Below are positions 13,041 through 31,948 of a DNA stretch of 58,881 bases, one piece after another. The DNA comes from an uncultured Bacteroidales bacterium (GTDB lineage: Bacteria > Bacteroidota > Bacteroidia > Bacteroidales > Muribaculaceae), in NCBI GenBank assembly GCA_947573135.1, contig CANPDU010000019.1, positions 1-58,881 of the forward strand, read 5' to 3'. The position numbers and the translations under genes were made by a program. Every line of letters starts with the position of its first letter. Within the stretch, counting starts at the first letter, position 1. Under the pieces are notes generated by a model that worked only from the letters and a program-made list of their open reading frames with translations, was not told where the DNA came from and did no database searches.

Positions 13041-14042
13041 TTATTTCGATTTTTTGAACTTTTTGACTTTGAGAGAGCCGTCGCTGTTGATGTGGAAAAT
13101 GCAAGGCTTGCCGTCGATATAAGCGCCGTATTCGAATGTCAGGCCGTCGGCAGCGTTCCGGCAGTTGTCGGCAACCGGTTCGCGGAACCAGGAGTAAATG
13201 CCGTGCCAGTTGAAGCGGTCTCCGGCCTTTACGGGCTGCATGCCGATGATCTTATGGTAGGTCTTGCTCCAGCTGTTGCCGATGAAGATGATATCGTCAT
13301 CGCGCACCATGTGATGGTCGCCGAGTCCGTCGCGCGTCATGTGAGCGGCCTGATAGCCGTTTTTCGAATGCTCAATAAATGTACTGAACTTCGGCGCCGA
13401 CGCTTTGGTAAACTGGATTTCATTGCCGGTGCTGGTCACGGGATATGTCGTCCACGTTGCGAATTGTCCTCCCGGCGTAAGGGTCTCGAATTCGTTCATG
13501 AACATCGACTGCATGCCGTAATAGCGTTCTATCGTCTCCGGAGCGCACAGAAATTCATGCGACGTCCTGACGTCGATCGAGTTGCCTGACACGGTATAAA
13601 CGACGTGTTCATTGGCTAGATCGCTGTCGTCGGTAGGATGCAGGAGTATGTTGTCGACTTCGACAGTGAGTATCTTGCCGTCGACGGTGCAGTCGCCGGT
13701 CAGCTCTTTGCCGTCGACTTTAACCTTGACATTGCGTGTATGGGCTGAAAGACGGTCATCGTTGACATGATTGCCGCCTGACCATCCTTTCTGATCGATG
13801 AGAAAGGGTCCGATGTTGTCGCTTTCGGTGTGGTTGACCTCTTTGCCGTCGATCGACACGCTGCTGAACGTATAGAGATTGTTTGCCATGCAGTTGGCAA
13901 ACGCGATGTCGATGTCGCCCCAGGGCGTTTTCTCGGAATATGCTATTTTGCCGTTGCGAAAGGTCACTGTGGCCGCATCAGAGACGGCAGGACATGCAGC
14001 GAAAAATGACGCAACGGCTATGACAGACAGATTAAGTTTCAT
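13041..14042 (-). CDS. Secreted PUL protein, unknown beta-rich family (paralogue B)
   Basis: A 333-aa protein with a signal peptide (MKLNLSVIAVASFFAACPAVSDA). I do not recognise the family. It is clearly paralogous to the gene directly upstream: shared segments include SDNIGPF, a GGNH motif (SGGNHVND/MGGNHNTP), a TRNVKVKVD/TREVKVMVD strand, YVVSGNSIEV-like strands, YYG-QSMF, and a WHxxYSWFREPV motif near the C-terminus. The alternating hydrophobic pattern suggests an all-beta fold, as in lectins, lyases or mutarotase-like enzymes. It lacks the sorting domain present in its paralogue. Its ATG overlaps the upstream stop (ATGA), so translation is coupled. The frame is open to 14105, but the signal peptide fixes the start at 14042. 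Confidence 0.75.
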   Translation of the reverse strand: MKLNLSVIAVASFFAACPAVSDAATVTFRNGKIAYSEKTPWGDIDIAFANCMANNLYTFSSVSIDGKEVNHTESDNIGPFLIDQKGWSGGNHVNDDRLSAHTRNVKVKVDGKELTGDCTVDGKILTVEVDNILLHPTDDSDLANEHVVYTVSGNSIDVRTSHEFLCAPETIERYYGMQSMFMNEFETLTPGGQFATWTTYPVTSTGNEIQFTKASAPKFSTFIEHSKNGYQAAHMTRDGLGDHHMVRDDDIIFIGNSWSKTYHKIIGMQPVKAGDRFNWHGIYSWFREPVADNCRNAADGLTFEYGAYIDGKPCIFHINSDGSLKVKKFKKSK

Positions 14043-15229
14043 TTCACGATGAGTTTGACAGAATGTCCTTTCATATCGTTGACGATGTAGATGCCCGGGC
14101 GGCATGAGAATGTGCCGGCTCCGCGCCAGATGATTTTTCCGGCGACATCGAAGCAGCAGGCGGCGGGCGCACTGTCACTGATGGTGACAGTGCCGTCACC
14201 GGCGAAAGCGAAGGGTGCGTCACGATCGACTGTAATGTCGTCGATGCCGGCGGTCTGAGTGGATTTTCCGTCGGCTCCGACTTTCATGTTGACAGGTTCC
14301 CCCTCGATATAAGTCTGATACTCGAACACGGGATCAGTCGTTTTTCCGTCGAAAGTGTCAGTAACGGGTTCGCGGAACCATGAGTAAAGTGCATGCCACT
14401 GCGTGTTGTCACCGGATTTCACCTGATGATCCCACATCAATACGTGATATGACTTGCCTGTTGCTGCGCCATAATTACGGAAAAGGTACACCTCGCCTGA
14501 CGATGAAACAGCAGAGGCATCACCGATCCCTTCGTTGTATTTCAGGACAGCCTGATAACCGTTGTCACAGCGCTCGATGAAGGTGGAGAAATCAGGTTTT
14601 TCAGATTTCATGACATCGATTTCCTTTTTGCCGGCAAGAGAAATCCAGGTTTTATTCTTGGTGCCGGGAAGAAGGAGTTTTGTCGCGGGAAACATAGACT
14701 GCGGGCCGTAATAACGGCTTACGAACATCGGTGACGGATAGCGGAAAGCGTGTTCTGCCCAGACTTCTATACTGTTACCGGAAACAACGTATGTGATATA
14801 TTCGTCGGCGAACTTCTTGTCGTCGGTATAGAAAATTTCGTTGCGGACGTCAATGGTGACAACTTTGGCGTCGTTGACAGTTCCAGAGGTCAGTTCTGCG
14901 TCGTCAACCATAACCTTTACTTCTCTTGTGAAAGCCGAAGGTTTCGAACCGCCCTGAGGGGTGTTATGATTACCTCCCATCCATGCTCCGCCGGCGAAAA
15001 ACGGACCTATATTGTCGCTTGACGCAGCCGAATTGACAAGTTTGTTGTCAAGATAGATGTTGTAGAACGTAAACAGTTTGTTTGTCATACATTTCTGAAA
15101 GACCATACGGATTTCGCCGCTTTCGGTGTTTTCGGAAAACGTCAGAACACCATTCGAATAGGTAACTTTAGCCGCTGATGCCGCCAGACTGCAGAGTGCG
15201 AACAGCAGCAAAATAAGATTCTTTTTCAT
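14039..15229 (-). CDS. Secreted PUL protein, unknown beta-rich family with T9SS-type C-terminus (paralogue A)
   Basis: A 396-aa protein: signal peptide (MKKNLILLLFALCSLAASA), a body homologous to the downstream gene (TVTYSNG/TFRNG start, SDNIGPFFAGG, GGNHNTPQ, FTREVKVMVDD, WHALYSWFREPV), then a roughly 60-residue Por-type sorting domain ending GIYIVNDMKGHSVKLIVK. The terminal domain is the type IX secretion/surface anchoring signal of Bacteroidetes, so this copy is expected on the cell surface while paralogue B is not. The function is unknown; location in the PUL suggests glycan binding or cleavage. It overlaps both neighbours by 4 bp. Confidence 0.75.
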   Translation of the reverse strand: MKKNLILLLFALCSLAASAAKVTYSNGVLTFSENTESGEIRMVFQKCMTNKLFTFYNIYLDNKLVNSAASSDNIGPFFAGGAWMGGNHNTPQGGSKPSAFTREVKVMVDDAELTSGTVNDAKVVTIDVRNEIFYTDDKKFADEYITYVVSGNSIEVWAEHAFRYPSPMFVSRYYGPQSMFPATKLLLPGTKNKTWISLAGKKEIDVMKSEKPDFSTFIERCDNGYQAVLKYNEGIGDASAVSSSGEVYLFRNYGAATGKSYHVLMWDHQVKSGDNTQWHALYSWFREPVTDTFDGKTTDPVFEYQTYIEGEPVNMKVGADGKSTQTAGIDDITVDRDAPFAFAGDGTVTISDSAPAACCFDVAGKIIWRGAGTFSCRPGIYIVNDMKGHSVKLIVK

Positions 15230-16356
15230 TTACGCTTGTTTTTATTATTGCCGGGTATAAGAGACGGATTGGCGCGGCGGTCGACAATTATTGTTGCGAG
15301 ACGGTCCATGATAGCCTGATTTTCAGGACAGGGATTTTTCACAAAGTCGAGCATAAGATGGCCTCCGGTGTAGTAGGCGATGGCAGCATCGGTGAAGACG
15401 TTGTGTCGCCAAAAGCCGTCCATATATGCGTTCATGCGGTCGTAGGATGAATTTTCTTTCTGGAAGAGAGCGTTTTCGTCGCATTCGAATTCCATGCCCA
15501 TGCCGTACTGGCGTGCGAGAGAACAGGCCTCGTCGATGCGTGAGTCGGGAATGTTTTTGTTGAAGAAGTGGTTGGGCTGGTGGTAGACAATGTCAAAACC
15601 GAGGTCGCGCCAGTTTTCAAAACCTTTGGCCTTGAAGTAGGGGATCCATACAAACTGCAGGCCGAGCTGATGGATATAGGGCGATATATGGCGAGTGAAG
15701 CCGTCGAGATGCCACATGTCTTCATCGACCCAGTAGATACCTGTGAGTTCAAGATTATTGAAGCCTGCTTTGGCGAAACGGTCGGTTAGCTGGTTGAGAT
15801 ACCACTGGCATGCGAGCTTGGCATCCTCGACATTGTCGAAGTCGAGCGCCTTACCGTTGACTTCGCCCCAGTCTTTCTGATGAGGCAGCGGCGTCGGGAG
15901 AGTGATGACAACTTTATGCTTGAAGCCCGGATCGCCTATTTCGGCTTTCTGATGCTCGATTGAAGTGTTGAGCGCATCGAGAGCCTTGCCTTTTTCGAAC
16001 ATACGGTCGAGATAGCGCTGCCAGTCCTCTTTGCGGGCGTCGCGTTTGCCGCGGTAGCCGGGCGCATAGTTACATTCGGGCATGTCGGCGAACTCAAGGA
16101 ACAGAAAACCGTCGAACAGCCAGTTTTTTTTGCCATTGGCGAATTTATGGACGACATAAGGCTCGATCTGGTCTTCGGTCCAGGGTATGCGCTGGCTGCC
16201 GCCCTGATAGATCAGTGCGAGATCGCGGATCTGGTTTATAGAGAAATTTTTTTCGGTCGACTGCCATGCCGGACCCTGATGTTTGTCCGATTTTGCTACA
16301 GCAGGGATCGAAATCGCAATAGCTAACAGCGGGAGCAGGAAATGTTTCAGTTTCAT
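15226..16356 (-). CDS. DUF4855 family secreted protein, copy 3
   Basis: About 376 aa with signal peptide MKLKHFLLPLLAIAISIPAVA. It shows the DUF4855 hallmarks QIRDLALIYQGGSQRIPWTEDQIEPYV, WLFDGFLFLEF, then LELTGIYWVDEDMWHLDGF, FVWIPYFKAKG, YHQPNHFF and GMGMEFECDE. The repeated acidic residues at the ends of predicted strands (YWVDED, EFECDE) resemble a TIM-barrel glycosidase, but no activity is established. An upstream ATG at 16395 overlaps the previous stop (ATGA) and would add 13 residues; the later ATG gives a cleaner signal peptide. No sorting domain is present, so it is probably periplasmic or a soluble secreted protein. Confidence 0.82.
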   Translation of the reverse strand: MKLKHFLLPLLAIAISIPAVAKSDKHQGPAWQSTEKNFSINQIRDLALIYQGGSQRIPWTEDQIEPYVVHKFANGKKNWLFDGFLFLEFADMPECNYAPGYRGKRDARKEDWQRYLDRMFEKGKALDALNTSIEHQKAEIGDPGFKHKVVITLPTPLPHQKDWGEVNGKALDFDNVEDAKLACQWYLNQLTDRFAKAGFNNLELTGIYWVDEDMWHLDGFTRHISPYIHQLGLQFVWIPYFKAKGFENWRDLGFDIVYHQPNHFFNKNIPDSRIDEACSLARQYGMGMEFECDENALFQKENSSYDRMNAYMDGFWRHNVFTDAAIAYYTGGHLMLDFVKNPCPENQAIMDRLATIIVDRRANPSLIPGNNKNKRK

Positions 16357-16391
16357 TATAAACGGGATTAGGTGGTTATTATGTTTTTTTG

Positions 16392-17495
16392 TCATTTGTC
16401 AGGTGTCAGAGAAGCGTTTTTGCGGCGGTCGACGATTATGCGGGCGAGGTGGTCGATGAGCGCGGAGTTTTCGGGCGACGGATTTTTAGCGAACTGTGCT
16501 ATGCCGACGCCGCCTTCATAGTAAGCGAGAGCCGCATCGGTGAATACGTTGTTACGCCAGTATGCGTCGATATAGCCCGTCATGCGGTCATAAGATGAAT
16601 CTTCGGCATCGTGAAGAGCTTTAGCGTCAAATTCGAATTCGAGCGCCATGCCGTTCTGGCGGGCAATGGAGCAAGCCTCGTCGAGACGGCTGTCGGGAAT
16701 ATTTTTACCGAAGAAGTGGTTGGGCTGATGGTAGGCGATATCGAAGCCGAGATCCTGCCAGCGGTCGTAGCCGTGGGCCTTGAAATAAGGAATCCATACA
16801 AACTGCAGTCCTTTTTCGTGAACGTAGGGTGCGACATGCTTTGGAAATCCGTCGAAATGGAGCATATCTTCGTCGACCCAATAGATGCCCGTAAGCTCAA
16901 GATTGTCGTAACCGCCCTTGTTGAAACGGTCGACGAGCTGATCGAGAAACCATTTGACGGCAAGCTTGCAGTCGTCGACGTTGTCGAAGTCAAGCTGACG
17001 TCCGTTTAGTTCGCCCCAGTCTTTCTGATGATGGATCGGGGGGAGGACGGTGAGTACAACTTTATGCCTGAAGCCCGGATCGCCGAGGAGTTGTTTCTGC
17101 CCGGCGATACATTTATTGAGTGCGTCGAGCGACTTGCCGGGTTCGAACACTCGGTCGAGATAGTGCTCCCAGTCACCTTTCTGTGCGTTGGGCATACGGA
17201 GACCGGGAATATACTGCCTGTCACCGTCGACAAATTCAAGAAAGAGGAAACCGTCGAACAGCCAGTCTTTCGAGCCGTCGGCAAATGTGTGGGTGACGTA
17301 GGGCACGAACTGTTCGGGGGTCCAGTCGGGACGGTGCCGTCCGCCCTGATAGATCAGCACGAGATCGCGGATCTGATTGATTGAATAGTTTTTCTGAGCG
17401 GATTGCCACGCGGAGCCGGAATTTTTATCGGCTGCAATCGCAGACACAGATGCCGCGGCGCAGGCGAAAGCGAGAATGATTGATTTGAAATTCAT
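16392..17495 (-). CDS. DUF4855 family secreted protein, copy 2
   Basis: A 367-aa protein with signal peptide MNFKSIILAFACAAASVSAIA. It is strongly similar to copy 3 along its whole length: SINQIRDLVLIYQGGRHRPDWT, WLFDGFLFLEFVDG, YDNLELTGIYWVDEDMLHFDGF, WIPYFKAHGYDRWQDLGFD, YHQPNHFFGKNIPDSRLDEA and MALEFEFDAKAL. It ends in VDRRKNASLTPDK without a sorting domain. Tandem duplication with copy 3 is evident. The shared acidic residues suggest an uncharacterised glycoside hydrolase, although that is inference. It lies 5 bp downstream of copy 1. Confidence 0.83.
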   Translation of the reverse strand: MNFKSIILAFACAAASVSAIAADKNSGSAWQSAQKNYSINQIRDLVLIYQGGRHRPDWTPEQFVPYVTHTFADGSKDWLFDGFLFLEFVDGDRQYIPGLRMPNAQKGDWEHYLDRVFEPGKSLDALNKCIAGQKQLLGDPGFRHKVVLTVLPPIHHQKDWGELNGRQLDFDNVDDCKLAVKWFLDQLVDRFNKGGYDNLELTGIYWVDEDMLHFDGFPKHVAPYVHEKGLQFVWIPYFKAHGYDRWQDLGFDIAYHQPNHFFGKNIPDSRLDEACSIARQNGMALEFEFDAKALHDAEDSSYDRMTGYIDAYWRNNVFTDAALAYYEGGVGIAQFAKNPSPENSALIDHLARIIVDRRKNASLTPDK

Positions 17496-17500
17496 CTTCT

Positions 17501-18832
17501 TTATTTAACGAAAAGTTTCATAGAATTGCCTCGTCTGTCGGATACGATATACAGTCCGGACTCGCAGGCAAATGATCCGGCACCGGTGTAAAGCAGGCGG
17601 CCTGAAATGTCGTGGCAGCATGTGTCGGCAGCAAGAGTGATGCAGCCGTCGCCGGTCGTCGCGATTGTAACCTGATCAGTGGTGACGTCGTTGATGGCTG
17701 CGTTGTCGCGTCTGGCTTTCTGACGTGCGGCGACAAAGCGTGCCATGCGGTCAATTGTGGCATGGTCTACGGGATCAGTGCTTTTATCCATGTGTATGAA
17801 GCCTTGTGTGCCTGAGTAGTATGCAATGCCGGCCTTGTCGAAAACGCCTTTTTCGTCGAATACATCCATATAATCATTAATATGCTGATGGAGAGTCGGA
17901 TTTACTTCGTGAAGGGCGTTGCTTTTAGCCTGAGTTTCGAATTCAAGCTCAAGCCCCATGCCGTAGTTCTTAGCGGCGTCGACTGTCTCGGTCAGCAGTG
18001 AGAACGGTTTCTCTGCACCGTTGTTGTCGAGGAAGGCATAGTTAGGCTGGATATAGCACATGTCGAAGTTGTATGTGTCTTTCCATTGCGACCAGTACTT
18101 CTGATTGTTTGAGTAGTATGGAATCCAGTATGAACGGAGTCCTTTAGAATGAATATAATCGTTGATTTCGGCCATGATGTCGCCGTTGGAGAAAAGTCCT
18201 TCCTCGATCCAGTAGACGCCTTCGAGATCGATGTTTTTGAAGCCGGCTGCCTCCCATCGGGCAAGGATTTCGTCGATATACCATTTCACGGCCGAAATGC
18301 GGTCGTTTTTGGAAATAAATCTAAGGCTTTTTCCATAAGCCGTACCCCATATGGATCTCGACCATTCACCGTTTTTATTTTTAGACGGCGCACAGCAGCT
18401 GATCACGACCTTGTGGCGTAAGGGCGGCTCGCCGAGGGTCTGTTTCTTATCGGAAATCAGTTTGTCGAGAGCATCGAGTTTCATGTCAGGTGCGAAAAAC
18501 TGGTCGAGCAGCCACGTCCAGTCGGACTGAGTCGCGGGATTGAGTCCGCTGCCGTTCTGGAACTGTACGTCGCCGTGTGAAAACTCAAGAAAAAGAAAAC
18601 CATCGAAAAACCAGTCTTCCGAGCCGTCGGCATAGCGGTGAGTGACATAGGGCGTGAGATCATCCTTGGTCCACGACGGACGGTGGGTGTTGCCGGCGTA
18701 GATCAACGCGAGATCGGAAATTTTGGGATCAGAACCGAACTGACCGACATTACCGTCGGCAAATACACCTATTGTGCCGGCCATAGAGACAATGGCGGCG
18801 ACAATGATTTTTTTCAGATTAAACCGTATCAT
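17501..18832 (-). CDS. DUF4855 family protein, copy 1, with T9SS-type sorting domain
   Basis: A 443-aa protein with signal peptide (FNLKKIIVAAIVSMAGTIGVFA). It is the most divergent of the three DUF4855 copies: ISDLALIYAGNTHRPSWTKDDLTPYVTHRY, WFFDGFLFLEFSHGD, DLEGVYWIEEGLFSNG, YWIPYYSNN and MGLELEFE. The last 70 residues form a Por-type domain ending ESGLYIVSDRRGNSMKLFVK, which neither of the other copies has, so this one is likely displayed at the surface. Its ATG overlaps the GH3 stop by 4 bp (ATGA). Confidence 0.83.
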   Translation of the reverse strand: MIRFNLKKIIVAAIVSMAGTIGVFADGNVGQFGSDPKISDLALIYAGNTHRPSWTKDDLTPYVTHRYADGSEDWFFDGFLFLEFSHGDVQFQNGSGLNPATQSDWTWLLDQFFAPDMKLDALDKLISDKKQTLGEPPLRHKVVISCCAPSKNKNGEWSRSIWGTAYGKSLRFISKNDRISAVKWYIDEILARWEAAGFKNIDLEGVYWIEEGLFSNGDIMAEINDYIHSKGLRSYWIPYYSNNQKYWSQWKDTYNFDMCYIQPNYAFLDNNGAEKPFSLLTETVDAAKNYGMGLELEFETQAKSNALHEVNPTLHQHINDYMDVFDEKGVFDKAGIAYYSGTQGFIHMDKSTDPVDHATIDRMARFVAARQKARRDNAAINDVTTDQVTIATTGDGCITLAADTCCHDISGRLLYTGAGSFACESGLYIVSDRRGNSMKLFVK

Positions 18833-21800
18833 TTATTGAGAATTTTTCTAAGAATTGGCAAAAGAGTGTCGCAGTATTTGCGGAAACCGATGTCGGTGTA
18901 GTGATATTCGTCGGAGGTCGCGTCGCCGTCCTCGGGCTGAAGATCGACCTGCTCGACATAATAGGTGTTGTCAAGACCGTTTTCGACCATACTCTGATAG
19001 ACATTGCGGATGGCGTTGTTTTTATTCCGGACTTCATCGGTGATTGCTTTATTGAGCGGTATGCCCGGGAATTTGGGATCCTCGATGAAGATTATCGGAG
19101 TGTCGGGATGACGGTCACGGAGAATTTTGACAAACTGCTCGGTCCGGTTGTTGATCTGATCGACCGAAGAGTTGGGAATATTGTCCATTATATATGCCGC
19201 AGCATCGATATCGGCCATCATTTCGGCAATTTCGTAGTCGAGTTTGCCGTTGGCGCTGAAACCGAGGTTGATGAACTCGCAGTCGAGTTCGCGCTGGAGA
19301 ATGTTTGATGCCGCCATGCCCGGGCGCGAAGCCGTGGCTCCATGGATGAGCGAAGTGCCGTAGATCACAACGGGTTTGCCGCGGCGCGGCGATTCGACGA
19401 CGGGCGGCGCGATTGTGTAGCCTTCGTCGATGCCGATTTCGAGGCGGTCGACCTGATCGTAGAGCGAGAGGTGGATCATGTATTCACGCATCTCCGGCTC
19501 CATATTGGCGGCGGCAGTCCAGTAGGTAGGATTGCCCATCGGGCGTCCCGGTCCGAGATAGCGCCAGCGTCCTTCGTCGGTGAGGACGTAGAGGTCGAGT
19601 CCGCGTGTGCCGAGATCGGCCATGTGGGTCATATGATTGTTGAAGACGGTGTTCCATTTAAGAATTATGTCGGGCGAGTTGCTGCGGAAGCGGACCGATA
19701 TGCCGGCTGAGTGCTGTCCGAGCTCGTAGACTTCATAGCGGGTGACATCCTTGCGGAAGGCCGGGATGCGGGCATATATGGGCAGCGAGTCGGGGTAGAC
19801 GCGGCCGAGGATCTCAAACTGCGAGGCGTCGTGCCATGTCAGTTTCTGTTTATGCTCGAAGAAGGGGTTGATGGTGTTAACCGGCTGCACGGGCGCAAGA
19901 ATATCGTTAACCTTACGCACAAGTTTTTTGTTTACCTTGAACTCGGCTTCGGAACGATAGTTGCCGGGGTGTCCGCCAAGGTGAGCCTTATATGTTCCGG
20001 GGTCGGTGATCCAAGCCGAGGCTGTGTCGTCGAACGATGCGAGGTCGGCGTCATTCACCTTAATGGTGACGCGCTGGCTTTCGCCGGGCTGCAGCAGACG
20101 TGTCTTCTCAAATCCGCGCAGTTCGGCCACAGGCTTGAGCATCGTTTTGCTTTCGGGGGCGGAGACATAGAGCGCAACGACCTCCTTGCCCGGCCGGTCG
20201 CCCGTATTGGTGACGGTCACCGACAATTCGGTCGAAGAACCGCGACGGCGGACCGACGGATCAGTATAAGCGAACTCGGTATAGCTCAGACCATAGCCGA
20301 AGGGATAAGCCGGGGCGAGGCCCGAGGCGTCGAAATAGCGGTAGCCGACCCATATGTCTTCCTGATATTCGGTATAGTCGAAGTTGCGGCCGCCCTGTTG
20401 TCCGAGATAGGGATAGTTGCGGGCCGACGGGATGTGGTCATAGGCGACAGGTAGTGTCATAGGCAGGCGTCCCGACGGATTGACACGTCCGGAAATGACA
20501 TCGGCGACGGCATCGCCGCATTCCTGACCGGGGAACCATGCCATGAGTATCGCGTCAGGGAGAGAGCTCCACGACGCTATCTCCATTGCTCCGCAGACAT
20601 TGAGTACTACGACGACAGGTTTGCCGACAGCGTGGAAAGCCTTACAGACGTTGTCGATCAGAGCGGTTTCCTCCGGCGAAAGATTATAGTCGCCGGCAAG
20701 ACTTCGGTCGGACGTCTCGCCTGATTTGCGGCCAATGACAACGACTGCCGCTTCGTTTTCATCGGCCTGACGCTTGAGCAGCGCCGAGGCTCCGGCGATG
20801 TTCATCTCAGGGATTACAGTGCGGTGATAGGAAATTTTCATCCAGTCGGGAGCCCACGTGGCGTTGTCGAGCACGGCTTCCTGAGCCGCGATATAATGGC
20901 GGTAGACCTCGGCGAGAGCCGGATTGATGCGGTAGCCGGCAGCTTCGAGGCCTCGGTCGATGTCGACAATATGCGATTTGTTGACATTAGACGATCCGGT
21001 GCCTCCGGCGATCGACTTGTAGGCTGTGGCGCCGAAAAGAGCTATCTTTGAGCCTTCGGGCAGCGGCAGCACGTCATTGCCGTTTTTCAGGAGCACCATG
21101 CTCTCGCCGGCAATCTGACGAGAAGCTTCGGCGTGGGCGGCGAGATCGGGCTCCGTACGGCTCCAGCCTTTGGCCGAGATTGATTTGGCAACGAGGCGCA
21201 GAACGTCGCCCACACAGGCATCGAGCTGCTTTTCGGAAATCTTGCCGTCTTTGACAGCCTTGATGATTTCCTGTACGCGGTCTTCGTTGCCGGGCATGAT
21301 CAGCGGGCAGCGCGCGTTGATGAGGCCGTCGGCCGGACGCCATACGGTCCAGTCAGTCAGAGCGAGGCCGTCGAAGCCCCACTCGTCGCGCAGCAGAGTG
21401 GTCATCAGTTCGCGGTTGGTCTGGGTAGGCTCGCCTGAAATATAATTGTAGGAACCCATCACAGTCCAGGGTCGGGCATCGCGCACGACGATCTCGAACG
21501 GCCGGGCATAGATCTCACGCAGGGCGCGCCGGGTCATACGGGCGTCGTTGACCTTTTTGCCGGTCTGCTGATTGTTGGCGATGAGGTGTTTGAGACTCGT
21601 GCCTATGCCTTTCGACTGTATGCCCTTGATTAGTTCTGACGCAAGGGCGCCCGTCAGTAAGGGGTCTTCGGAATAATATTCGAAGTTGCGTCCGCACAGC
21701 GGATTGCGCATGATATTGACGCCGGGCGACAGAATGACGTCGACGCCGTAGGCCCGGGCTTCGTCGCCCATGATCTCGCCCTGGAGGGCGGCCATGTCGC

Positions 21801-22315: not shown

Positions 22316-22330
22316 GGTTATGAAGTCTGA

Positions 22331-23731
22331 TTATTTAACGACGATCTTGGCTGCTTTATTGTCTGCCTTGACAATGTAGACACCTGCGGGAACAGCGATC
22401 GAACCGTTGCCCTCGGCGATCAGCTGCCCGGCAACAGAGTAAACCTGAGCCACACTTTCGCTTTCAACGATAATACGGCCTTCGCCACCGAATATTTTAG
22501 CCTCGTTAATGTCGGCGACAATATCTTCAACACCGGCAGAACCGGTGAGGTCGAGTTGCCATACTTCCATTACTTTACCTGGACAATAGAGATAGATACG
22601 GAATTTACCGTCCTCACCTTCGATTGGTTCAACGTTGAGGCCGCGGTATGTGCCGGCTGCGCCATAATCTTCTGTCGCATACTTGAAGGCAACGGGTTTG
22701 TGAAGCTGCACTGACCAGTCTTCAGGATCTTCAGTCGCTGTCTTGTTTTTGGGAGAGTCAAGGAGTTCCTCCGGCATTACAAAAAAGCCGTCGGCAGAGG
22801 GATATCCACCAAACATTCCAGACGGATAGATTACATAATTATTACCGTCATAGTTGAAGATATAGAAGCCGCTGCAGTTATTATGGTTAGGAAGGTTAAA
22901 CCATTTGTTTGCGAACATATAATCTTCTCCGTCAAATTCGAAGACTGCAAGATTATTTCCCCAGCCGTTAAGACCGTAAGTTACATTAAGGTGAGGATTA
23001 GCCATTACTGCAATATTCTCACTGCCGTTGTACATCTGAGCTTGTGCCTGTGAGGTAATTGTATTTGCCGGGCTGGGGAAGCCACCTTCTTTAAGTGCTG
23101 ATGTAATATTAAAGGTAGGAACATTGTCACTGACTTGTTCGAGTTTTTCATAAATAAATTCTGCGCCCCATTTATTTTGGACTGCAACAGGAATTTCAAC
23201 GTAATCATTGACCATATCCCCGACTACGTGAGGCAATTCGTCGAAACGAATTGACTGAGGAAGTCCGGCCATAGGTATATCACGTGCAATAATTTCGTCA
23301 GTTTTCGTGTCGATTACACTGAATTTTGTTTTGTCAGAGTGATAATATGCGCCAGGGACGAGCTTGCCTTTTTCGGTATAGCAAGAGCGAGGATCATTCC
23401 ATCCGCCATCGTCATGACGGAAGTAAACGTGTCCGGCATCATCGCAGTTGATTGATATCCACGTTTCCTTGTGATCGATCATTTTGATCTGGCCGTCTTT
23501 ATTATAGATTTCTATGCCCGTTTCTCTTACAGTAACGTAGAATTTACCGTTTATACCGATACCGGTTCGGGCGAGATCAGAATTTTTTGCCTGACCGGTC
23601 GGAATCCCGTACCATTCGAGTGTCAGATTCTCAGAAGTCTTGTTGGGGCCATAAGACGGCTCGGGATCTGCTGCAAACATTGTACCGACAGTACCTGTTG
23701 CAAGTAAAGACAGAAGTAATAGTCTTTTCAT
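22331..23731 (-). CDS. Secreted PUL protein with T9SS-type sorting domain, unknown
   Basis: A 466-aa protein with signal peptide (MKRLLLLSLLATGTVGTMFA) and a C-terminal sorting domain ending PAGVYIVKADNKAAKIVVK. The body has many short beta-strand segments with aromatic and Gly-Asn patterns (NNLAVFEFDGEDYMFANKW, GFYIFNYDGNNYVIYPSG, MEVWQLDLTGSAGVEDI), like a beta-propeller; I do not recognise a named family. Position after SusC/SusD and a putative glycosidase suggests a surface glycan-binding role, as SusE/SusF play in other PULs, but no homology to those is claimed. Confidence 0.72.
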   Translation of the reverse strand: MKRLLLLSLLATGTVGTMFAADPEPSYGPNKTSENLTLEWYGIPTGQAKNSDLARTGIGINGKFYVTVRETGIEIYNKDGQIKMIDHKETWISINCDDAGHVYFRHDDGGWNDPRSCYTEKGKLVPGAYYHSDKTKFSVIDTKTDEIIARDIPMAGLPQSIRFDELPHVVGDMVNDYVEIPVAVQNKWGAEFIYEKLEQVSDNVPTFNITSALKEGGFPSPANTITSQAQAQMYNGSENIAVMANPHLNVTYGLNGWGNNLAVFEFDGEDYMFANKWFNLPNHNNCSGFYIFNYDGNNYVIYPSGMFGGYPSADGFFVMPEELLDSPKNKTATEDPEDWSVQLHKPVAFKYATEDYGAAGTYRGLNVEPIEGEDGKFRIYLYCPGKVMEVWQLDLTGSAGVEDIVADINEAKIFGGEGRIIVESESVAQVYSVAGQLIAEGNGSIAVPAGVYIVKADNKAAKIVVK

Positions 23732-25808: not shown

Positions 25809-27619
25809 CAATAGTCGGGATTAGTGAGGTTGGGGTCACGGTCAGTGTCGACGCGCGGTATCGGCCACCACTGGAAGCGGGGCGCCCAGAACCGGTTTTC
25901 GTCGCGAACACGCAGTTTGTCTTTGTAATGCTCGTAGTGAGCTACATCGTTGAGGTTGCTGCGGTGAGGATCGAGACCGTAGCTAAAGTTCGGGATATCG
26001 GTCGCTTCTAGCCCCTCATATTTGATGTCAGCAATAGGATTGCCATAAGAGGGGAATTCATTAGTAATATCACCAATCTGCCAGCGACGGACATCAGTAA
26101 AGATCACGCCCTCCATGGCAAGCTCACATTTGCGTTCGCGGCGCACACGCTGACGGAATTTATCCTGAACGCTGAGATCGCCGAGACTCTCGCCTGCGAC
26201 ACAGGCTTTTGAGTCGATAACGGGCTGACCGGCGCGGCGGCGGACGGCGTTAATGGCTTCGAGAACAGATGCGTCCTCATATTTTCCCATTTCAATCATT
26301 GCTTCGGCGTAGGTGAGGTAGACTTCAGCTGCACGGATAATAGAAATGTCGCAGGTGCTTTCGGCGCAGCTTTCTGCAAGATCTTCATTATATTTATTCC
26401 ACAACCAGCCTGAGCCGTGGCGGCAGAACGAAGCCTCAGTACCAGTTACATCTGCATTGTCTTTTGTTCCCCATAACTTAGGATTACGCGGTCCGGGAAA
26501 AACCCTGGCCTTACTATCGTATGCATTTATGATCAATTTAATTACAGACGCACCGCCATTGTTAGAATAAACCATTGTATCGCCATGTGCGAGAAGTGTC
26601 TGACGGAAGCGAAGGTCTCGTTTCTGAGTCGGCTTTTGGGGGTCGTAGAGCGGTGACTGGTCGATGCGGAGACCGTCGATGCACTCGTAGGTATCGGCAA
26701 GAAGCTGAGATGGGAAGCGTACCGTCGAGCCTCCGGCTGTACGTGATGTATGGCCGAGTCGTGTACGATGGAAGTGACGGCGCACATCTGCTTCGTAACA
26801 GAGCTCCCAAATCATTTCACTGCGGACATCAGCTTTCTTTTGTCCGTCGAGAGTGAAGAGATCGGCAAAGTTTGTGGCGAGCTCACGGTGATCCATCACT
26901 TGCTTGGCCGCATCAGCCGCTTTCCGGAAATAAGCCTGGCCCTCGCCGCCGAAATCAAGACTACCGGCGAAAAGTGCGAAGCGAGATAATAAAGCATATG
27001 CAGTCGCTCGGTCGACGTGTCCACGAACAGACGCAGTCCATTCAAGAACATCGCTTTCTGCGATTTCAGTCAAGTCATTGATAAGATAGTCGACGATATA
27101 TTTTTTATCGGTTCTGCCAACAGTATATTCTGAGGGTGTAACTGACTTAGTGAAGAAAGGAATGTCGCCAAAAGTGGTTACTAGATTGTAGTAGCCATAC
27201 GCGCGGAGAATTTTAGCTTCGGCTTTAAGACGGCGGTAATCGTCAGATAAGTCTTCACTATCGTCGCGCGTTCCTTCAAGCACTGAATTAGCTCGGCCTA
27301 CAATACCCCAGTGTCCAGACCAGTAGGAATTGACGTATGACTGGTCGGGCGTCAGACCGCCGCCTGCACCGATAGTACGGTTTTCTGTTGTCTCAAGACC
27401 ATAAGCGGTGTAAACGTCCTGAACCATTGTCGGCGGAACGTCCCAGTTAAGGTTGAATGGTACGATGCGGTAGATGGCAGTCACGCCTTCGTCAAGGCCG
27501 GCATCTGTCTTATAATAGCCGTCTGAGTCGTAAGCTGAGCTATGTTTGTCGAGGAAGTCTGAGCAACTTGCCAGTGAAGATGCAGCTGCGACAAATAATA
27601 TATAAATTGATTTTTTCAT
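25808..27619 (-). CDS. susD: SusD/RagB family surface glycan-binding lipoprotein
   Basis: A 603-aa lipoprotein: MKKSIYILFVAAASSLASC with the lipidated Cys at position 19, followed by SDFLDKHSSAYDSDGYYKT, the typical SusD start. TPR-like helical segments appear in EAKILRAYGYYNLVTTFGDIPF and the C-terminal AEVYLTYAEAMIEMGKY and NAVRRRAGQP motifs. SusD caps the SusC transporter and captures the glycan at the outer membrane. It is located 13 bp after susC, as in nearly all PULs. Confidence 0.95.
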   Translation of the reverse strand: MKKSIYILFVAAASSLASCSDFLDKHSSAYDSDGYYKTDAGLDEGVTAIYRIVPFNLNWDVPPTMVQDVYTAYGLETTENRTIGAGGGLTPDQSYVNSYWSGHWGIVGRANSVLEGTRDDSEDLSDDYRRLKAEAKILRAYGYYNLVTTFGDIPFFTKSVTPSEYTVGRTDKKYIVDYLINDLTEIAESDVLEWTASVRGHVDRATAYALLSRFALFAGSLDFGGEGQAYFRKAADAAKQVMDHRELATNFADLFTLDGQKKADVRSEMIWELCYEADVRRHFHRTRLGHTSRTAGGSTVRFPSQLLADTYECIDGLRIDQSPLYDPQKPTQKRDLRFRQTLLAHGDTMVYSNNGGASVIKLIINAYDSKARVFPGPRNPKLWGTKDNADVTGTEASFCRHGSGWLWNKYNEDLAESCAESTCDISIIRAAEVYLTYAEAMIEMGKYEDASVLEAINAVRRRAGQPVIDSKACVAGESLGDLSVQDKFRQRVRRERKCELAMEGVIFTDVRRWQIGDITNEFPSYGNPIADIKYEGLEATDIPNFSYGLDPHRSNLNDVAHYEHYKDKLRVRDENRFWAPRFQWWPIPRVDTDRDPNLTNPDY

Positions 27620-27632
27620 TGCAATCAGATAA

Positions 27633-30600
27633 TTAGAAATCTAAATTGAGACCGAAAAGGAATGATTTGTTGAGCGGATAGCAACTTGCGCCGGCACTTG
27701 TTTCCGGATCAAAACCTTTATAAAAATTATCGCCGCGGATAGTAAACAGGTTCTGCATAGTGACGTAGAAGCGAACGCGTTCTATAGTTGCCTTATTAGT
27801 CCATTTACGAGGAAGAGTATATCCGACTACAAGGTTTTTCAGACGACAGTAGGCACCGCTTTGTACCCAAAATGAAGATTCGTAGTTATTGGGGTGGTTA
27901 CCGTTGGGATCTTGAAGAAGGATCGGAAACTTGGCGTTTGGATTGTCCTCGCTCCATGTATCAAGCTGATATTCATAGACTGTGGTATTGCCAATGAACG
28001 GGCGAGAACCTCCGCCACTGTAGTACACATCCTTTTTGGGTACGCCGTGGAACATTGCTGAAAAGTCGATGCCTTTCCACTCAAAACCGAGTGAGACACT
28101 ATATTCATAGTGTGCACGGTTTTCACCGATGACCGTTCGGTCGTCAGCAGTAATCTTGCCGTCACCGTTAAGATCCCGATATTTGATGAAACCGGGTTTT
28201 GTGTTTGCTCGTTCGTTGACTACGGCATAAATGTAATTACCGTTTTCATCTTTAGCGTTGATTTCGTCATATGACTGGAAGAAGCCGTCGGCAACATAAC
28301 CATAGTAGCTGTTGATAGGCAATCCTTCGTCGGTGATCCTTGTGCCGATATATGGATTGTGACCGTAAAGATCGAGTACTTTATTTCGTACGTCTGAGAT
28401 ATTGCCTCTGACAAAGTAGTTGAAATCGCCTATGCGGTCGTTCCAAGAGAGTGAGAGTTCCCAGCCGCGGTTACGCATATCTCCGGCATTGACAGTCGGT
28501 GCACCAAGTGCTACAAATTCCGGGACCGGGAATGTCTGAAGCATATCGGTCACTTTGCGGTAATAGAAATCAAATGTACCCGAGAGACGGCTGTTGAAAA
28601 GGCTGAAATCAAGACCAAGATCCCACTGTGATGATTTTTCCCACCCTATTTCAGCATTAGGAAGCTGGACTTGAGCCGCGCCTGTAGAGAAGCCTTTATC
28701 AAACCAATAGCCGTAGCCGTCGCCTGCTGAGACTGCGGAAAGATAAGGGAAAAAGCTGCCTATAGACTGGTTGCCTAGTCGGCCATATGACCCTCGGATC
28801 TTGAGGTTATCGACAACTGGGCGGAGAGATTCCCAGAAATGTTCCTCGGAAATACGCCATCCGACCGATGCAGATGGGAAAAATCCCCAGCGTTTGTGAG
28901 CGAGAAAGCGGGATGTGCCGTCGTAACGACCTGTGAATTCGAACAGATAACGATTGTCGAAGATGTAGTTGAGACGGAAAACATATGCAAGCATTGACCA
29001 TTCGTAGCGGTAGGTCGAGTTGGTGGCTGTTGTAGAATCTCCGTGGCCTACATCCTCATAACCGTCGTAACGATGTCCTTTACGGTTGCCTGTCAGCGAG
29101 CTGTTGAAGAACTCTTCGCTCTGCATGCCGCCCATGACTTTGAGATAATGTTTTTCCGCAAAGGTATTTTCATATGTGGCCATGACGTTATATTGCTTCA
29201 AGATCGAAGCAGAGCGTTCTTCATTGGCGGAGCGGAGAGAGCTCGGATAGAGTTTGCCCTCATTACCAGACCAAAGTTCGTAATTGTTGGCGTAAGCTTT
29301 TGTGATACCGTCATTACGCTTCCATGTGTAGGTGCCGAGAATATTAAGGCCCTTAAATGGATTGATGTTGGCTGTGACCTTTGCGATATATTCGGGAGCT
29401 ACGCTATGATTATAACCACCGGCATTAATTGCTGCGACGGGGTTATTGCCGTTATTGTTCCCGGCTCCCCAGGTTCCGTCGGCGTTGACTGCAGACCAGG
29501 TAGGAATAAATGTCATCGCATAACCGATATACTGGTTGGCCGATCCACCGATTGGGGCGTGGACAACTGACTGACGCACACTCATATCAACTCCGAGGCT
29601 TAACCATTTGTTGACTTCAAAATCGGAGTTGAGCCGCAGATTGGTTCGCTCGAATGTGTTGTTGGCCACCATACCGTCCTGTTTGTAATAACCGGCTGAA
29701 GCAAATAGTCTGATCATCTTGCTGCCGCCGCTGACCGTTACAGCGTAATTTTGAGCCAAAGCACTTTTTTTCATGATCATATCGCGCCAGTTTGTGTCGT
29801 GACGATTGATACCGTCAGCACCTTCTGTCAGATAAGCATTGATGAGGTCTTCGTTCATAGCAGACTGTCCTTCATTGATACGTGCCTGATCTACAGCACG
29901 AAGAAAGCCGATAGCATCGACTGATTTAGGCATAGAGGTTGGTTTATTGATGCCGAGGTAGCCATTAAACGAAACTTTAATTTTACCTTCCGAACCGCGT
30001 TTGGTGGTGACGAGAATCACACCGTTTGACGCACGGGCACCGTAGATTGATGCAGATGCAGCGTCTTTAAGAACCGAAATAGATTCTATTTGATTAAGAT
30101 CGATACGGTTGAGATCGCCTTCTATACCGTCGATAAGCACGAGAGGAGACTGCGTAGAGGATATTGAGCCCTCGCCACGGATGCGTATAGAAACCTGATC
30201 GGCACCTGGCGCTCCTGATGATTGTGTGGCGGTAAGGCCGGGCACAATTCCCTGAAGTGCAGATGATCCGTTTGAAACACTGCGTTTTAAGATTTCCTTA
30301 CTGCCGACACTCTGAACTGCGCCCGTGAGGTTGATTTTTTTCTGGGTGCCGTAGCCGACCACGACGACATCGTCGAGAGTGTTGTTGTCAGTCAGAAGCG
30401 TCACGTTGTGTACGCCGGCTTTGCTGACTTTGATTTTCTCCGGTTTCATGCCGAGATACTCGAATGACAGTGTCGTCGGGGCGGAAAGGGTGATTGAATA
30501 ATTGCCGTCGATATCCGTTATGACTGCTGCCTTGCCGTTTTCGGCCTTTACAGAAACGCCGATAAGCGCTTCGCCTTCTTCGTCGGTGACAGTGCCTGTC

Positions 30601-30695
30601 ACCTTAAAGCTTGATTGGGCTGATGCGAAAGCGGCGGTAAACAGTAGAGTCGCGATGAGAGTCGTCAGCCGTGACAGATTAAAAAGTCTCTTCAT
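27633..30695 (-). CDS. susC: SusC/RagA family TonB-linked outer membrane transporter
   Basis: A 1020-aa TonB-dependent receptor. After the signal peptide it has a carboxypeptidase-regulatory-like domain (VTGTVTDEEGEALIGVSVKAENGKAAVITDIDGNYSI), a TonB box followed by the SusC signature (DDVVVVGYGTQKKINLTGAV), the plug domain (SPLVLIDGIEGDLNRIDLNQIESISVLKDAASASIYG) and a 22-strand barrel ending in LFGLNLDF with a terminal Phe. It imports oligosaccharides across the outer membrane using TonB energy. No N-terminal STN domain is present, so signalling through an anti-sigma factor is unlikely, in line with ROK control of this locus. Confidence 0.96.
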   Translation of the reverse strand: MKRLFNLSRLTTLIATLLFTAAFASAQSSFKVTGTVTDEEGEALIGVSVKAENGKAAVITDIDGNYSITLSAPTTLSFEYLGMKPEKIKVSKAGVHNVTLLTDNNTLDDVVVVGYGTQKKINLTGAVQSVGSKEILKRSVSNGSSALQGIVPGLTATQSSGAPGADQVSIRIRGEGSISSTQSPLVLIDGIEGDLNRIDLNQIESISVLKDAASASIYGARASNGVILVTTKRGSEGKIKVSFNGYLGINKPTSMPKSVDAIGFLRAVDQARINEGQSAMNEDLINAYLTEGADGINRHDTNWRDMIMKKSALAQNYAVTVSGGSKMIRLFASAGYYKQDGMVANNTFERTNLRLNSDFEVNKWLSLGVDMSVRQSVVHAPIGGSANQYIGYAMTFIPTWSAVNADGTWGAGNNNGNNPVAAINAGGYNHSVAPEYIAKVTANINPFKGLNILGTYTWKRNDGITKAYANNYELWSGNEGKLYPSSLRSANEERSASILKQYNVMATYENTFAEKHYLKVMGGMQSEEFFNSSLTGNRKGHRYDGYEDVGHGDSTTATNSTYRYEWSMLAYVFRLNYIFDNRYLFEFTGRYDGTSRFLAHKRWGFFPSASVGWRISEEHFWESLRPVVDNLKIRGSYGRLGNQSIGSFFPYLSAVSAGDGYGYWFDKGFSTGAAQVQLPNAEIGWEKSSQWDLGLDFSLFNSRLSGTFDFYYRKVTDMLQTFPVPEFVALGAPTVNAGDMRNRGWELSLSWNDRIGDFNYFVRGNISDVRNKVLDLYGHNPYIGTRITDEGLPINSYYGYVADGFFQSYDEINAKDENGNYIYAVVNERANTKPGFIKYRDLNGDGKITADDRTVIGENRAHYEYSVSLGFEWKGIDFSAMFHGVPKKDVYYSGGGSRPFIGNTTVYEYQLDTWSEDNPNAKFPILLQDPNGNHPNNYESSFWVQSGAYCRLKNLVVGYTLPRKWTNKATIERVRFYVTMQNLFTIRGDNFYKGFDPETSAGASCYPLNKSFLFGLNLDF

Positions 30696-30708
30696 TAACG
30701 ATAGATTG

Positions 30709-30718
30709 TTCGGTTAAT
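30709..30718 (-). promoter_or_regulatory. Possible single ROK operator half-site upstream of susC
   Basis: TTCGGTTAAT, in the 35-bp gap between the ROK gene and susC, matches TTTGGTTAAT (reverse strand of the repeats at 32054-32099) at nine of ten positions. Short and therefore weak evidence on its own. Confidence 0.35.
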
Positions 30719-30730
30719 ATTTTAAGGTGG

Positions 30731-31948
30731 TTAGTCTATATAGTCGTCGAAGGCGCAGCGTCGGGCTGTGGCGCAGGATCCGATGAGTCCCGACTGGTCG
30801 CCGAGCTGCGAGATAACGATTTTTGTATCTTTGTTGACGAGATTGAGCGAATAGCGGCGCACGGCGGTCATCACCGGCTGCAGGATATAGTCGCCGACAG
30901 CCGACAGCGCACCTCCGAGTATCACTTTTTCGGGGTTGAAGATATTGATTATGCCGGCAAGCCAGCGGCCGAGCTCACGGCCCATGTCCTCGACAAGCTC
31001 GATACAGAGGAGATCTTCGCTGTCTATGGCTTCGAAGATGTCGTCGAGAGTGATGGTTTTGTTTTCGCGGTAGCGGTCGGCGATCAGCGAGTTGGCGCCG
31101 GCTTCGAGTCGCTCGATGAGCTTGCGGACAAGCGCGCGGCCCGAGGCCTCGGTTTCGAGACAGCCTTTCTTGCCGCAGTGGCAGATGATTTCGTTGTCGT
31201 AGGTGACCATATGGCCGATCTCGCCGGCGAAACCTGATTTGCCGTAGTAGATCTTGCCGTCGATGATTATGCCGAGTCCGATGCCCCAGCTGAGATTTAG
31301 GAATATGAGGTTGTCGATCTTGCTGCAGTCGCCGTAGATATATTCGCCGTAGGTCATTGCGCGGGTGTCGTTCTCGATGCACACGCGTAGCCCGAGCTTT
31401 TCGGAGAGCACCTCGCTCAGAGGCATTTCCTCGAAGTTGTAGCGGCTGTAGCTGTAGCCCATCATGGGGTTGACACGGCCCGAAATGTTGACATTGACGG
31501 CGAGGATGGCCGAGCGGTCGACCGACCGCGAGTTGATAAAGCGGTTGATGATGTCGCAGAGTTGTGACAGATTGTCGACGGAGTTGCATGATTCGAAGTC
31601 GATGTCGAGCTGTTTTTCGATCACTTTTCCTCCGAAATCCATAAGCCCGAGTGAAAGTGATCCGTTTTTGATATCGACGCCGACGAAATAGCAGGAATCG
31701 GGATTCAGGCCATAGGTGTTTGGATGCCGTCCGCTGCCGGTCTCTGTTTTGCCGCCTTCTTTGATAAGGCCTGTGTCGGTCAGTTCGTCGACAAGTTTGG
31801 ATACGGTCGGAATGCTTAGTCCCAGACGCTTTGCAAGGTCAGGGATAGTGGCATTGCCGTGTTTCATGTGATAAGCGATGATCCGTCGTTTCGACTGAGC
31901 GCTTTTTGTACCTTTCTCGATTTCTTTCAGTAGTGCCAGTGCTGCCAT
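30731..31948 (-). CDS. ROK family transcriptional regulator
   Basis: A 405-aa protein of the NagC/XylR type. An N-terminal winged helix (HMKHGNATIPDLAKRLGLSIPTVSKLVDELTDTGLIKEGG) precedes a sugar-kinase-like ROK domain with DIKNGSLSLGLMDFGG, the zinc cluster CHCGKKGCLETEASG and VILGGALSAVG. ROK regulators bind a sugar or sugar phosphate and usually repress nearby catabolic genes. It lies 35 bp upstream of susC on the same strand, with no obvious terminator between, and upstream of its own start are tandem 23-bp repeats covering the promoter. It is therefore the likely controller of the whole PUL. No ECF sigma, SusR or hybrid two-component gene is present here. Confidence 0.9.
   Translation of the reverse strand: MAALALLKEIEKGTKSAQSKRRIIAYHMKHGNATIPDLAKRLGLSIPTVSKLVDELTDTGLIKEGGKTETGSGRHPNTYGLNPDSCYFVGVDIKNGSLSLGLMDFGGKVIEKQLDIDFESCNSVDNLSQLCDIINRFINSRSVDRSAILAVNVNISGRVNPMMGYSYSRYNFEEMPLSEVLSEKLGLRVCIENDTRAMTYGEYIYGDCSKIDNLIFLNLSWGIGLGIIIDGKIYYGKSGFAGEIGHMVTYDNEIICHCGKKGCLETEASGRALVRKLIERLEAGANSLIADRYRENKTITLDDIFEAIDSEDLLCIELVEDMGRELGRWLAGIINIFNPEKVILGGALSAVGDYILQPVMTAVRRYSLNLVNKDTKIVISQLGDQSGLIGSCATARRCAFDDYID

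What the first reader, a model, noticed from the sequence alone, without database searches (positions are those of the whole stretch)
13041..31948. PUL built mostly from enzyme families of unknown activity
A ROK-regulated SusC/SusD locus carries one recognisable GH3 enzyme; the rest are a DUF6259-like protein, a beta-rich sorting-domain protein, three tandem DUF4855 proteins and two tandem paralogues of a family I could not name. Tight overlaps suggest one co-expressed machine. The target glycan cannot be deduced, so the enzymes and specificity may be new.
Basis: partly seen in the sequence, partly recalled or inferred. Interest (0 to 1): 0.75.

Follow-up and report, generated by a model that had tools for sequence, protein, structure and literature searches.

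The report
Gut PUL, likely for phosphate-linked glycans
This is a real sugar-import and sugar-digestion operon of a gut Bacteroidales bacterium, built mostly from uncharacterised enzyme families; many relatives elsewhere fuse or pair the same enzymes with phosphodiester-cutting enzymes, which suggests that its unknown food is a phosphate-containing glycan and makes that guess testable.

Summary
In detail: 11 minus-strand genes form a PUL: ROK regulator, SusC, SusD, DUF6259, beta-rich tail protein, GH3, three DUF4855, two Pfam-less paralogues. DUF4855 models as a confident TIM barrel with conserved Glu after strand 4 and at the end of strand 7, so it is probably a glycosidase. The paralogues (PA family) model as a stand-alone beta-supersandwich. 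Of 49 PA-family loci, 32 carry DUF4855; 22 of the 32 also encode a GDPD, EEP, NAGPA or calcineurin-type enzyme, against 0 of 17 without DUF4855. Eight loci fuse DUF4855 to GDPD, two fuse PA to EEP. Two relatives share the reported product order of B. [quoted passage not shown] Best reading: a PUL for an amino-sugar glycan with phosphodiester bonds, such as teichoic acid or an inositol-phosphate glycolipid headgroup. Against it: the window holds no GDPD, EEP or NAGPA, so its clade lost them, uses copies elsewhere, or eats something else. No substrate is shown.

The parts
30731..31948 (-). ROK-family regulator (Mlc/NagC-like)
   Evidence: NCBIfam Mlc E 3e-57, NagC E 2.5e-56, both below curated cut-offs
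32055..32093 (-). two exact copies of TTGGTTAATCGCCAAT (32055-32070, 32078-32093), candidate ROK operator; a 3-mismatch third copy at 31973-31988
   Evidence: the only matches in the window at up to 3 mismatches; chance mean 0.56. TTGG-N5..9-CCAA not seen in 350 bases upstream of three related ROK genes
27633..30695 (-). SusC (TonB-dependent receptor with CarbopepD_reg_2 and plug)
25808..27619 (-). SusD
   Evidence: SusD_RagB E 2.7e-39
23775..25811 (-). DUF6259 protein, guessed to be a TIM-barrel hydrolase (not modelled); TTG start in this ORF call
   Evidence: E 1.2e-101; very weak profile link to GHL10
22331..23731 (-). beta-rich protein (BETA) with T9SS-like C-terminal tail; no known family
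   Evidence: (Por_Secre_tail E 0.0022, below cut-off)
18829..22215 (-). GH3 + Fn3-like fused to GxDLY + SGNH esterase
   Evidence: GH3 N and C, Fn3-like, GxDLY E 1.5e-38, Lipase_GDSL_3 E 2.2e-57
17501..18832 (-). DUF4855 no. 1, with a C-terminal tail like that of PB
16392..17495 (-). DUF4855 no. 2 (modelled)
15226..16395 (-). DUF4855 no. 3
14039..15229 (-). PB: beta-supersandwich domain + tail (modelled)
13041..14105 (-). PA: paralogue of PB, 41% identical, no tail; likely start at 14042
12984..13027 (.). 19-pair hairpin between the converging operon end and the AbiE genes, terminator-like
   Evidence: scored on the + strand

Best explanation
It is a polysaccharide utilisation locus for an amino-sugar-containing glycoconjugate that carries phosphodiester bonds. 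SusC/SusD would import fragments. DUF4855 (three copies) and DUF6259 would be glycosidases, GH3 would trim released sugars, and the fused SGNH esterase would remove ester groups. The PA/PB supersandwich proteins would be companion binding or carbohydrate-active domains that act next to the phosphodiester. A NagC/Mlc-like ROK protein would repress the operon at the two TTGG-N7-CCAA sites. Shown by computation: gene content, order, two folds, conserved acids, and the association of these families with phosphodiester enzymes in relatives. Inferred: all activities, the substrate class and the regulation. In the window clade, phosphodiester cleavage would have to be done by enzymes encoded elsewhere in the genome or by other bacteria.
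For: Of 49 PA-family loci, 32 carry DUF4855. Of these 32, GDPD is in 16, EEP in 7, NAGPA in 8, calcineurin-type in 2, and at least one of the four in 22; 0 of the 17 PA loci without DUF4855 have any. DUF4855-GDPD fusions in 8 loci and PA-EEP fusions in 2 (Pfam-checked for L112 and L097, and L055, the same contig as L098). NAGPA lies within a few kb of DUF6259 at 13 of 16 over-cut-off DUF6259 places in 198 same-family genomes. All four GDPD seeds keep two His motifs, the EEP seeds their motifs, and three of four NAGPA seeds DGGGS (motifs recalled). Amino-sugar enzymes recur in related loci: GH89, GH20, N-acylglucosamine 2-epimerase over cut-off, GH2 with exo-glucosaminidase Ig domain. DUF4855 is a TIM barrel, pLDDT 91.6, with E209 and E288 in 32 of 32 rows and E286 in 31 of 32. 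In 8 genomes reached through these loci, 15 of 15 DUF4855 copies lie inside them by coordinates.
Against: A six-frame scan finds no GDPD, EEP or NAGPA in the 58,881-base window. Of the 32 DUF4855 loci 10 have none of the four enzymes: L090-L093, L099, L100, L104, L105, L109, L134; in L090 and L091, as in the window, DUF6259 is followed directly by BETA, without NAGPA. In L118 and L119 the GDPD and EEP lie on the other strand several kb away, in L117 the NAGPA does, and the EEP of L108 is on the other strand. The 17 control loci are not ideal: several are short contigs or belong to distant PA branches. The loci are not deduplicated (L112 and L113 near-identical, L118 and L119 the same genus). 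NAGPA and GDPD are common in the family (99 and 135 of 198 genomes). The DUF4855 model has no close solved relative (best TMq listed 0.45) and its top hits by E-value are tryptophan synthase alpha chains, not glycosidases. No assay.
Confidence: 0.45

Rival explanations
1. The substrate is a Gram-positive glycerol-phosphate polymer (wall or lipoteichoic acid). GDPD would cut glycerol phosphate as GlpQ does, the SGNH esterase would remove D-alanyl or acetyl esters, GH89, GH20, GH36 and GH27 would take off GlcNAc or Gal, and NAGPA would cut the GlcNAc-alpha-1-P linkage unit. This is a narrower form of the best explanation, and its odds are part of that one's.
For: GDPD in 16 of 32 DUF4855 loci; GH36 in 3, GH27 in 2 and GH89 in 3 of 32; N-acylglucosamine 2-epimerase; calcineurin-type phosphoesterase. 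A calcineurin-family enzyme, PhoD, is reported to cut teichoic acids (PMC11488536, passages). The teichoic chemistry is recalled knowledge.
Against: No such phosphodiester enzymes in the window. Nothing in hand specifies glycerol. DUF5009 in L112 and L113 is not explained. Four paper searches for a Bacteroides or Muribaculaceae link listed no relevant title; the listed papers were not opened.
Confidence: 0.22
2. The substrate is the headgroup of an inositol-phosphate glycolipid: host GPI anchors or plant glycosyl inositol phosphoryl ceramides. DUF5009 and GH89 would together remove alpha-linked glucosamine, and EEP or GDPD would cut the phosphodiester. Also a narrower form of the best explanation.
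For: DUF5009 with GH89 and DUF4855-GDPD in L112 and L113. Some EEP proteins score against PGAP2IP, a GPI-processing family (E 1.7e-6, 3.4e-9; 0.0022, below cut-off). The B. [quoted passage not shown] The logic of alpha-glucosamine removal is recalled.
Against: No known alpha-mannosidase family and no inositol gene appeared among the neighbours that were Pfam-scanned (a sample of the genes). DUF5009 was seen only in L112, L113 and its duplicate L146. EEP also scores as exonuclease III. No paper search was made for GPI or GIPC degradation.
Confidence: 0.18
3. An ordinary PUL for a neutral or O-acetylated dietary or host glycan; the phosphodiester enzymes are unrelated neighbours or salvage phosphate.
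For: The window has GH3 plus esterase and no GDPD, EEP or NAGPA. GDPD and NAGPA are common in the family. BT_0439 was detected in supernatants of B. thetaiotaomicron grown on galacto-oligosaccharides and hMOS (PMC5238430, Table 2 passage).
Against: Eight DUF4855-GDPD and two PA-EEP fusions, and 22 of 32 against 0 of 17 loci, are hard to explain by chance neighbours.
Confidence: 0.35

Closest known systems
Bacteroides thetaiotaomicron BT0438-BT0449 region (GH89, SusC, SusD, DUF4855 BT0442, DUF5009, GHL10, calcineurin-like phosphoesterase, GHL10)
   Same: SusC/SusD with DUF4855; L112 and L113 reproduce the reported product order and also carry a PA-family gene and DUF4855 fused to GDPD
   Different: The window has DUF6259, BETA, GH3-esterase and three DUF4855; GH89, GDPD, DUF5009, GHL10 and the phosphoesterase are not among its PUL proteins. 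The B. thetaiotaomicron sequence itself was not examined here; its annotation is from PMC10434189 passages
Bacteroides salyersiae and B. nordii loci L110 and L116 (no description found)
   Same: DUF6259, BETA, GH3, two DUF4855 and PA in the same order
   Different: NAGPA lies between DUF6259 and BETA and a GDPD follows PA; L110 has a separate esterase gene
GlpQ-type GDPD phosphodiesterases and the NAGPA (uncovering enzyme) family
   Same: Domains found beside or fused to the window's families in relatives
   Different: Absent from the window; activity on teichoic acid or GlcNAc-1-phosphodiesters is recalled, not tested

Membership tests
Sus-type polysaccharide utilisation locus | adjacent SusC and SusD genes | tested here: met
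Sus-type polysaccharide utilisation locus | co-oriented carbohydrate-active enzymes and a sugar-type regulator | tested here: met
   GH3 and SGNH, ROK, gene layout
Sus-type polysaccharide utilisation locus | induction by and growth on a defined glycan | not testable with these tools
   no expression or growth data
DUF4855 (PF16147) | full-length match over curated cut-off | tested here: met
   three proteins, 265-347 bits against 27
Clan GH-A-like retaining glycosidase (for DUF4855) | TIM barrel | tested here: met
   model pLDDT 91.6 with eight main strands; matches to TIM-barrel proteins only weak, TMq up to 0.45, best E-values to tryptophan synthase
Clan GH-A-like retaining glycosidase (for DUF4855) | conserved Glu at the ends of strands 4 and 7 | tested here: met
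   E209 and E288 32 of 32, E286 31 of 32 rows; positions against strands; all three window copies keep them
Clan GH-A-like retaining glycosidase (for DUF4855) | sequence relation to a solved glycosidase | tested here: not met
   no PDB chain at E up to 1 with the profile
beta-supersandwich (galactose-mutarotase-like) fold (for PA/PB) | fold match | tested here: inconclusive
   Foldseek E down to 3e-7 to GH38, heparan lyase, GH36, GH97 and YidC chains, but TMq only 0.31-0.41 and rmsd 7-22 in the 50 rows shown; that these share a supersandwich is recalled
beta-supersandwich (galactose-mutarotase-like) fold (for PA/PB) | epimerase or lyase catalytic residues | not tested
Phosphodiester-glycan (teichoic-type) utilisation locus | phosphodiester-cutting enzyme within the locus | tested here: not met
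   no GDPD, EEP or NAGPA in the window, though 22 of 32 related DUF4855 loci have at least one such enzyme
B. thetaiotaomicron BT0438-BT0449 type locus | DUF4855 with SusC/SusD | tested here: met
   BT0442 from PMC10434189 passage
B. thetaiotaomicron BT0438-BT0449 type locus | GH89, DUF5009, GHL10 and calcineurin-like phosphoesterase in the cluster | tested here: not met
   none among the ten window PUL proteins scanned or ten flanking genes; the rest of the window was not scanned for them

The most novel reading that the evidence does not exclude
DUF4855, DUF6259 and the PA supersandwich family are three new carbohydrate-active families dedicated to one widespread but unrecognised Bacteroidota system that harvests phosphodiester-linked glycans, either the teichoic acids of neighbouring Gram-positive bacteria or the headgroups of inositol-phosphate glycolipids. 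The window clade keeps only the glycan-trimming half and relies on phosphodiesterases encoded elsewhere in its genome or in the community.
Probability: 0.25. Interest if true: 0.85.

Novelty: new variant of a known kind. Interest (0 to 1): 0.58.

Why it matters
PULs are well known, but this type consists mostly of families with no assigned activity, and its apparent B. thetaiotaomicron counterpart is reported as switched on in the gut by an unknown substrate. If the phosphodiester lead is right, it names a small set of purified substrates to test and could assign functions to three families at once. It would also show gut Bacteroidota feeding on an unusual class of glycans. For teichoic acids I found no PUL in four searches of the held papers; GPI anchors and plant sphingolipid headgroups were not searched.

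Tried and rejected
Sequence searches of PB, DUF4855 and DUF6259 against solved structures gave nothing meaningful. Profile comparison found no DUF4855-DUF4434 or DUF4855-DUF6259 relation and only a very weak DUF6259-GHL10 one (probability 6.5%), so I do not claim these kinships. The GDPD hit to 7ww4/7wwc, called a beta-1,3(4)-glucanase, was considered as a laminarin lead. The matched stretch is their GDPD-like N-terminal part, and a paper passage names 7WWC both as a P. terrae glucanase with laminarin, without accompanying publication, and as a B. circulans xylanase; I do not use it as function. NCBIfam equivalogs for the GH3 (best: exo-alpha-L-arabinopyranosidase) all fall far below their cut-offs, so I give no substrate for it. 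I first took two genes of the second DUF6259/DUF4855 locus (L052) for SusC/SusD; one search shows GH2 and GH20, so that locus is not called a PUL. BETA counts are partly tail matches and are not used. The ORF caller lost the PA gene in four loci (L103, L106, L111, L136) and counted L146, a duplicate of L113, so counts come from the six-frame rerun without L146. Sigma-70-like promoters were no more frequent than chance. One search found five exact Bacteroides-type promoter patterns (consensus recalled) in the window, none inside this operon or just upstream of its ROK gene.
Full report
What is there. Eleven co-oriented genes run on the minus strand from 31948 to 13041. In transcription order they are a ROK regulator, SusC, SusD, a DUF6259 protein, a beta-rich protein with a T9SS-like tail (BETA), a GH3 + Fn3-like + GxDLY + SGNH-esterase protein, three DUF4855 proteins, and two proteins of a family without any Pfam entry, here called PB and PA. 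Four of the ten gene junctions overlap by 4 bases, a fifth probably does (PB/PA), three have gaps of 5 to 35 bases, and the two beside BETA are wider (43 and 115 bases); a small terminator-like stem lies in the wider one. A 19-pair hairpin separates the operon end from an AbiE-type gene pair that faces it. Upstream of the ROK gene two exact 16-base copies with TTGG-N7-CCAA symmetry stand 23 bases apart; with a degenerate third copy they are the only such matches in the window. I read them as a candidate operator. They were not found upstream of three related ROK genes.

What the unknown proteins look like. DUF4855 no. 2 models with pLDDT 91.6 as a TIM barrel. E209, just after strand 4, and E288, at the end of strand 7, are invariant in the 32 aligned rows and E286 is kept in 31 of 32; all three window copies keep them. 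That is the layout of retaining clan-A glycosidases (recalled). Against it: no solved chain is related by sequence, structural matches have TMq of at most 0.45 in the 50 rows shown, and the best by E-value are tryptophan synthase alpha chains; glycosidases of GH26 and GH84 and B. thetaiotaomicron BT_0435, labelled a putative fucosidase, are among the others. PB models with pLDDT 90.3 as an all-beta domain plus tail. Its matches are parts of GH38, heparan lyase, GH36 and GH97 enzymes and YidC, at low TM (0.31-0.41) and high rmsd. I read this as a beta-supersandwich (recalled fold knowledge), not as proven. PB keeps many invariant polar residues (N73, H88, E143, Y174, E219, K259, H262, W278 and others in 32 of 32 rows), more than I would expect of a plain binding module. 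I could not test catalysis. DUF6259 and BETA were not modelled.

Relatives in the same family. A protein search with PB in 198 same-family genomes hit 24; most of the weaker hits are to the tail only. DUF4855 matches in 27 of 198 (26 over cut-off) and DUF6259 over cut-off in 15 of 198. At 13 of 16 over-cut-off DUF6259 places a NAGPA gene (PF09992, phosphodiester glycosidase) lies within a few kb. The three others are the window, G182, and G108, whose contig I did not read. NAGPA is common in the family (99 of 198 genomes), but with at most ten copies in any of these genomes, each more than a million bases long, that proximity is not chance.

Relatives across the phylum. A scan of one genome per species with a PA/PB alignment gave 48 named loci, from Muribaculaceae, Bacteroides salyersiae, B. 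nordii, B. faecalis, Alistipes, Dysgonomonas, Sphingobacterium and others. With one further locus (L147) I scanned 49 in six frames. All 49 carry the PA family, 32 also DUF4855. In those 32, GDPD occurs in 16, EEP in 7, NAGPA in 8, a calcineurin-type phosphoesterase in 2, and at least one of these four in 22. In the 17 loci without DUF4855 none occurs. DUF4855 is fused to GDPD in 8 loci, PA to EEP in 2, DUF4855 to PA in 2, and GDPD to EEP in 2 (Pfam support for examples). Limits of this count: the set is not deduplicated (L112 and L113 are near-identical, L118 and L119 the same genus); flank lengths differ and several controls are short contigs or distant PA branches; the GDPD, EEP and NAGPA profiles were built from four seeds each; presence means within the fetched stretch, and in L117 (NAGPA), L118 and L119 the enzymes lie on the other strand some kb away. 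In 8 genomes reached through these loci, all 15 DUF4855 copies sit in them by coordinates, so the family looks dedicated to this kind of locus; but the window's own genome also has three DUF4855 genes on contig C3 with no PUL gene recognised nearby. In 296 genomes drawn from the whole phylum only 4, the window's own among them, have DUF4855. PA is in 5 of 99 genomes of the genus of B. salyersiae.

Other recurring neighbours point to amino sugars: GH89, GH20, N-acylglucosamine 2-epimerase over its curated cut-off, and, in the second DUF6259/DUF4855 locus of the window's own genome, GH2 with an exo-glucosaminidase Ig domain and a sugar isomerase that resembles GlmS and GlmD below their cut-offs. 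Alpha-galactosidase families GH36 and GH27 also occur.

Link to a known open case. L112 and L113 carry GH89, SusC, SusD, a surface protein (BT_3987-like by Pfam in L112), DUF4855-GDPD, PA, a CE2-like esterase and, on the other strand, DUF5009, GHL10, a calcineurin-type phosphoesterase and GHL10. Table passages of PMC10434189 list the B. thetaiotaomicron products BT0438 alpha-N-acetylglucosaminidase, BT0439-40 SusC/SusD, BT0442 DUF4855, and BT0446-49 DUF5009, family 10, calcineurin-like and family 10, in the same order. [quoted passage not shown] I did not have the B. thetaiotaomicron sequence, so the equivalence rests on gene order and product names.

Interpretation. Repeated fusion of DUF4855 with GDPD and of PA with EEP, and the NAGPA neighbour of DUF6259, say that these families often work on the same molecule as phosphodiester-cutting enzymes. 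Together with the amino-sugar enzymes and the esterases, the most economical substrate class is an amino-sugar glycan with phosphodiester bonds. Teichoic acids fit GDPD, NAGPA, esterase and alpha-galactosidase. Inositol-phosphate glycolipids (GPI anchors, plant GIPC) fit EEP, GDPD and the DUF5009 + GH89 pair. I cannot choose between them.

The result against this reading is that the window itself contains no GDPD, EEP or NAGPA. Nor do its nearest relatives L090-L093, as far as their short contigs go, nor the 21-kb loci L105 and L109. In L090 and L091, as in the window, DUF6259 is followed directly by BETA where most relatives have NAGPA. The genome has three NAGPA and five GDPD matches, one NAGPA in the second DUF6259/DUF4855 locus, so action in trans is possible but not shown. 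For the window operon alone a plainer substrate remains quite possible.

Verdict. Kind of system: a PUL, known; its enzyme set: an uncharacterised variant.

Noticed in passing
window 11330-12980 (+): AbiEi-type antitoxin (11330-12085) and AbiEii nucleotidyltransferase (12069-12980) gene pair, a type IV toxin-antitoxin, facing the PUL across a strong hairpin
   Followed up: no
window 2728-3125 (+): tmRNA gene with tag GENNYALAA
   Followed up: no
L052 (own genome, contig C11): Second DUF6259/DUF4855 locus: SIS isomerase, ROK kinase, GH2 with exo-glucosaminidase Ig domain, GH20, a 746-aa protein without Pfam, DUF6259, NAGPA, DUF4855, ADP-ribosylglycohydrolase; DUF6259-NAGPA-DUF4855 recurs in L069, L070, L072, L073, L078
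   Followed up: partly
L051:10308-14403 (own genome, contig C3): Three further tandem DUF4855 genes; of the neighbours only two were Pfam-scanned (a Rho-like and a DUF2807 protein) and none matched a window PUL protein
   Followed up: partly
L127:15560-17032: GDPD fused to a 3-keto-disaccharide hydrolase domain, beside a DUF4855 gene and a GH97 gene
   Followed up: no
L059:4765-8559 and L056:12301-15582: BETA family repeated inside one protein (1265 and 1094 aa) next to single BETA genes, so it expands by repetition in this locus type
   Followed up: no
L089 (G169) and similar proteins of G033, G042 and others: The DUF6259 profile gives sub-threshold hits around profile positions 100-205 to proteins mostly of about 1100 aa, one of which is GHL10 by Pfam; a possible distant kinship
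   Followed up: partly
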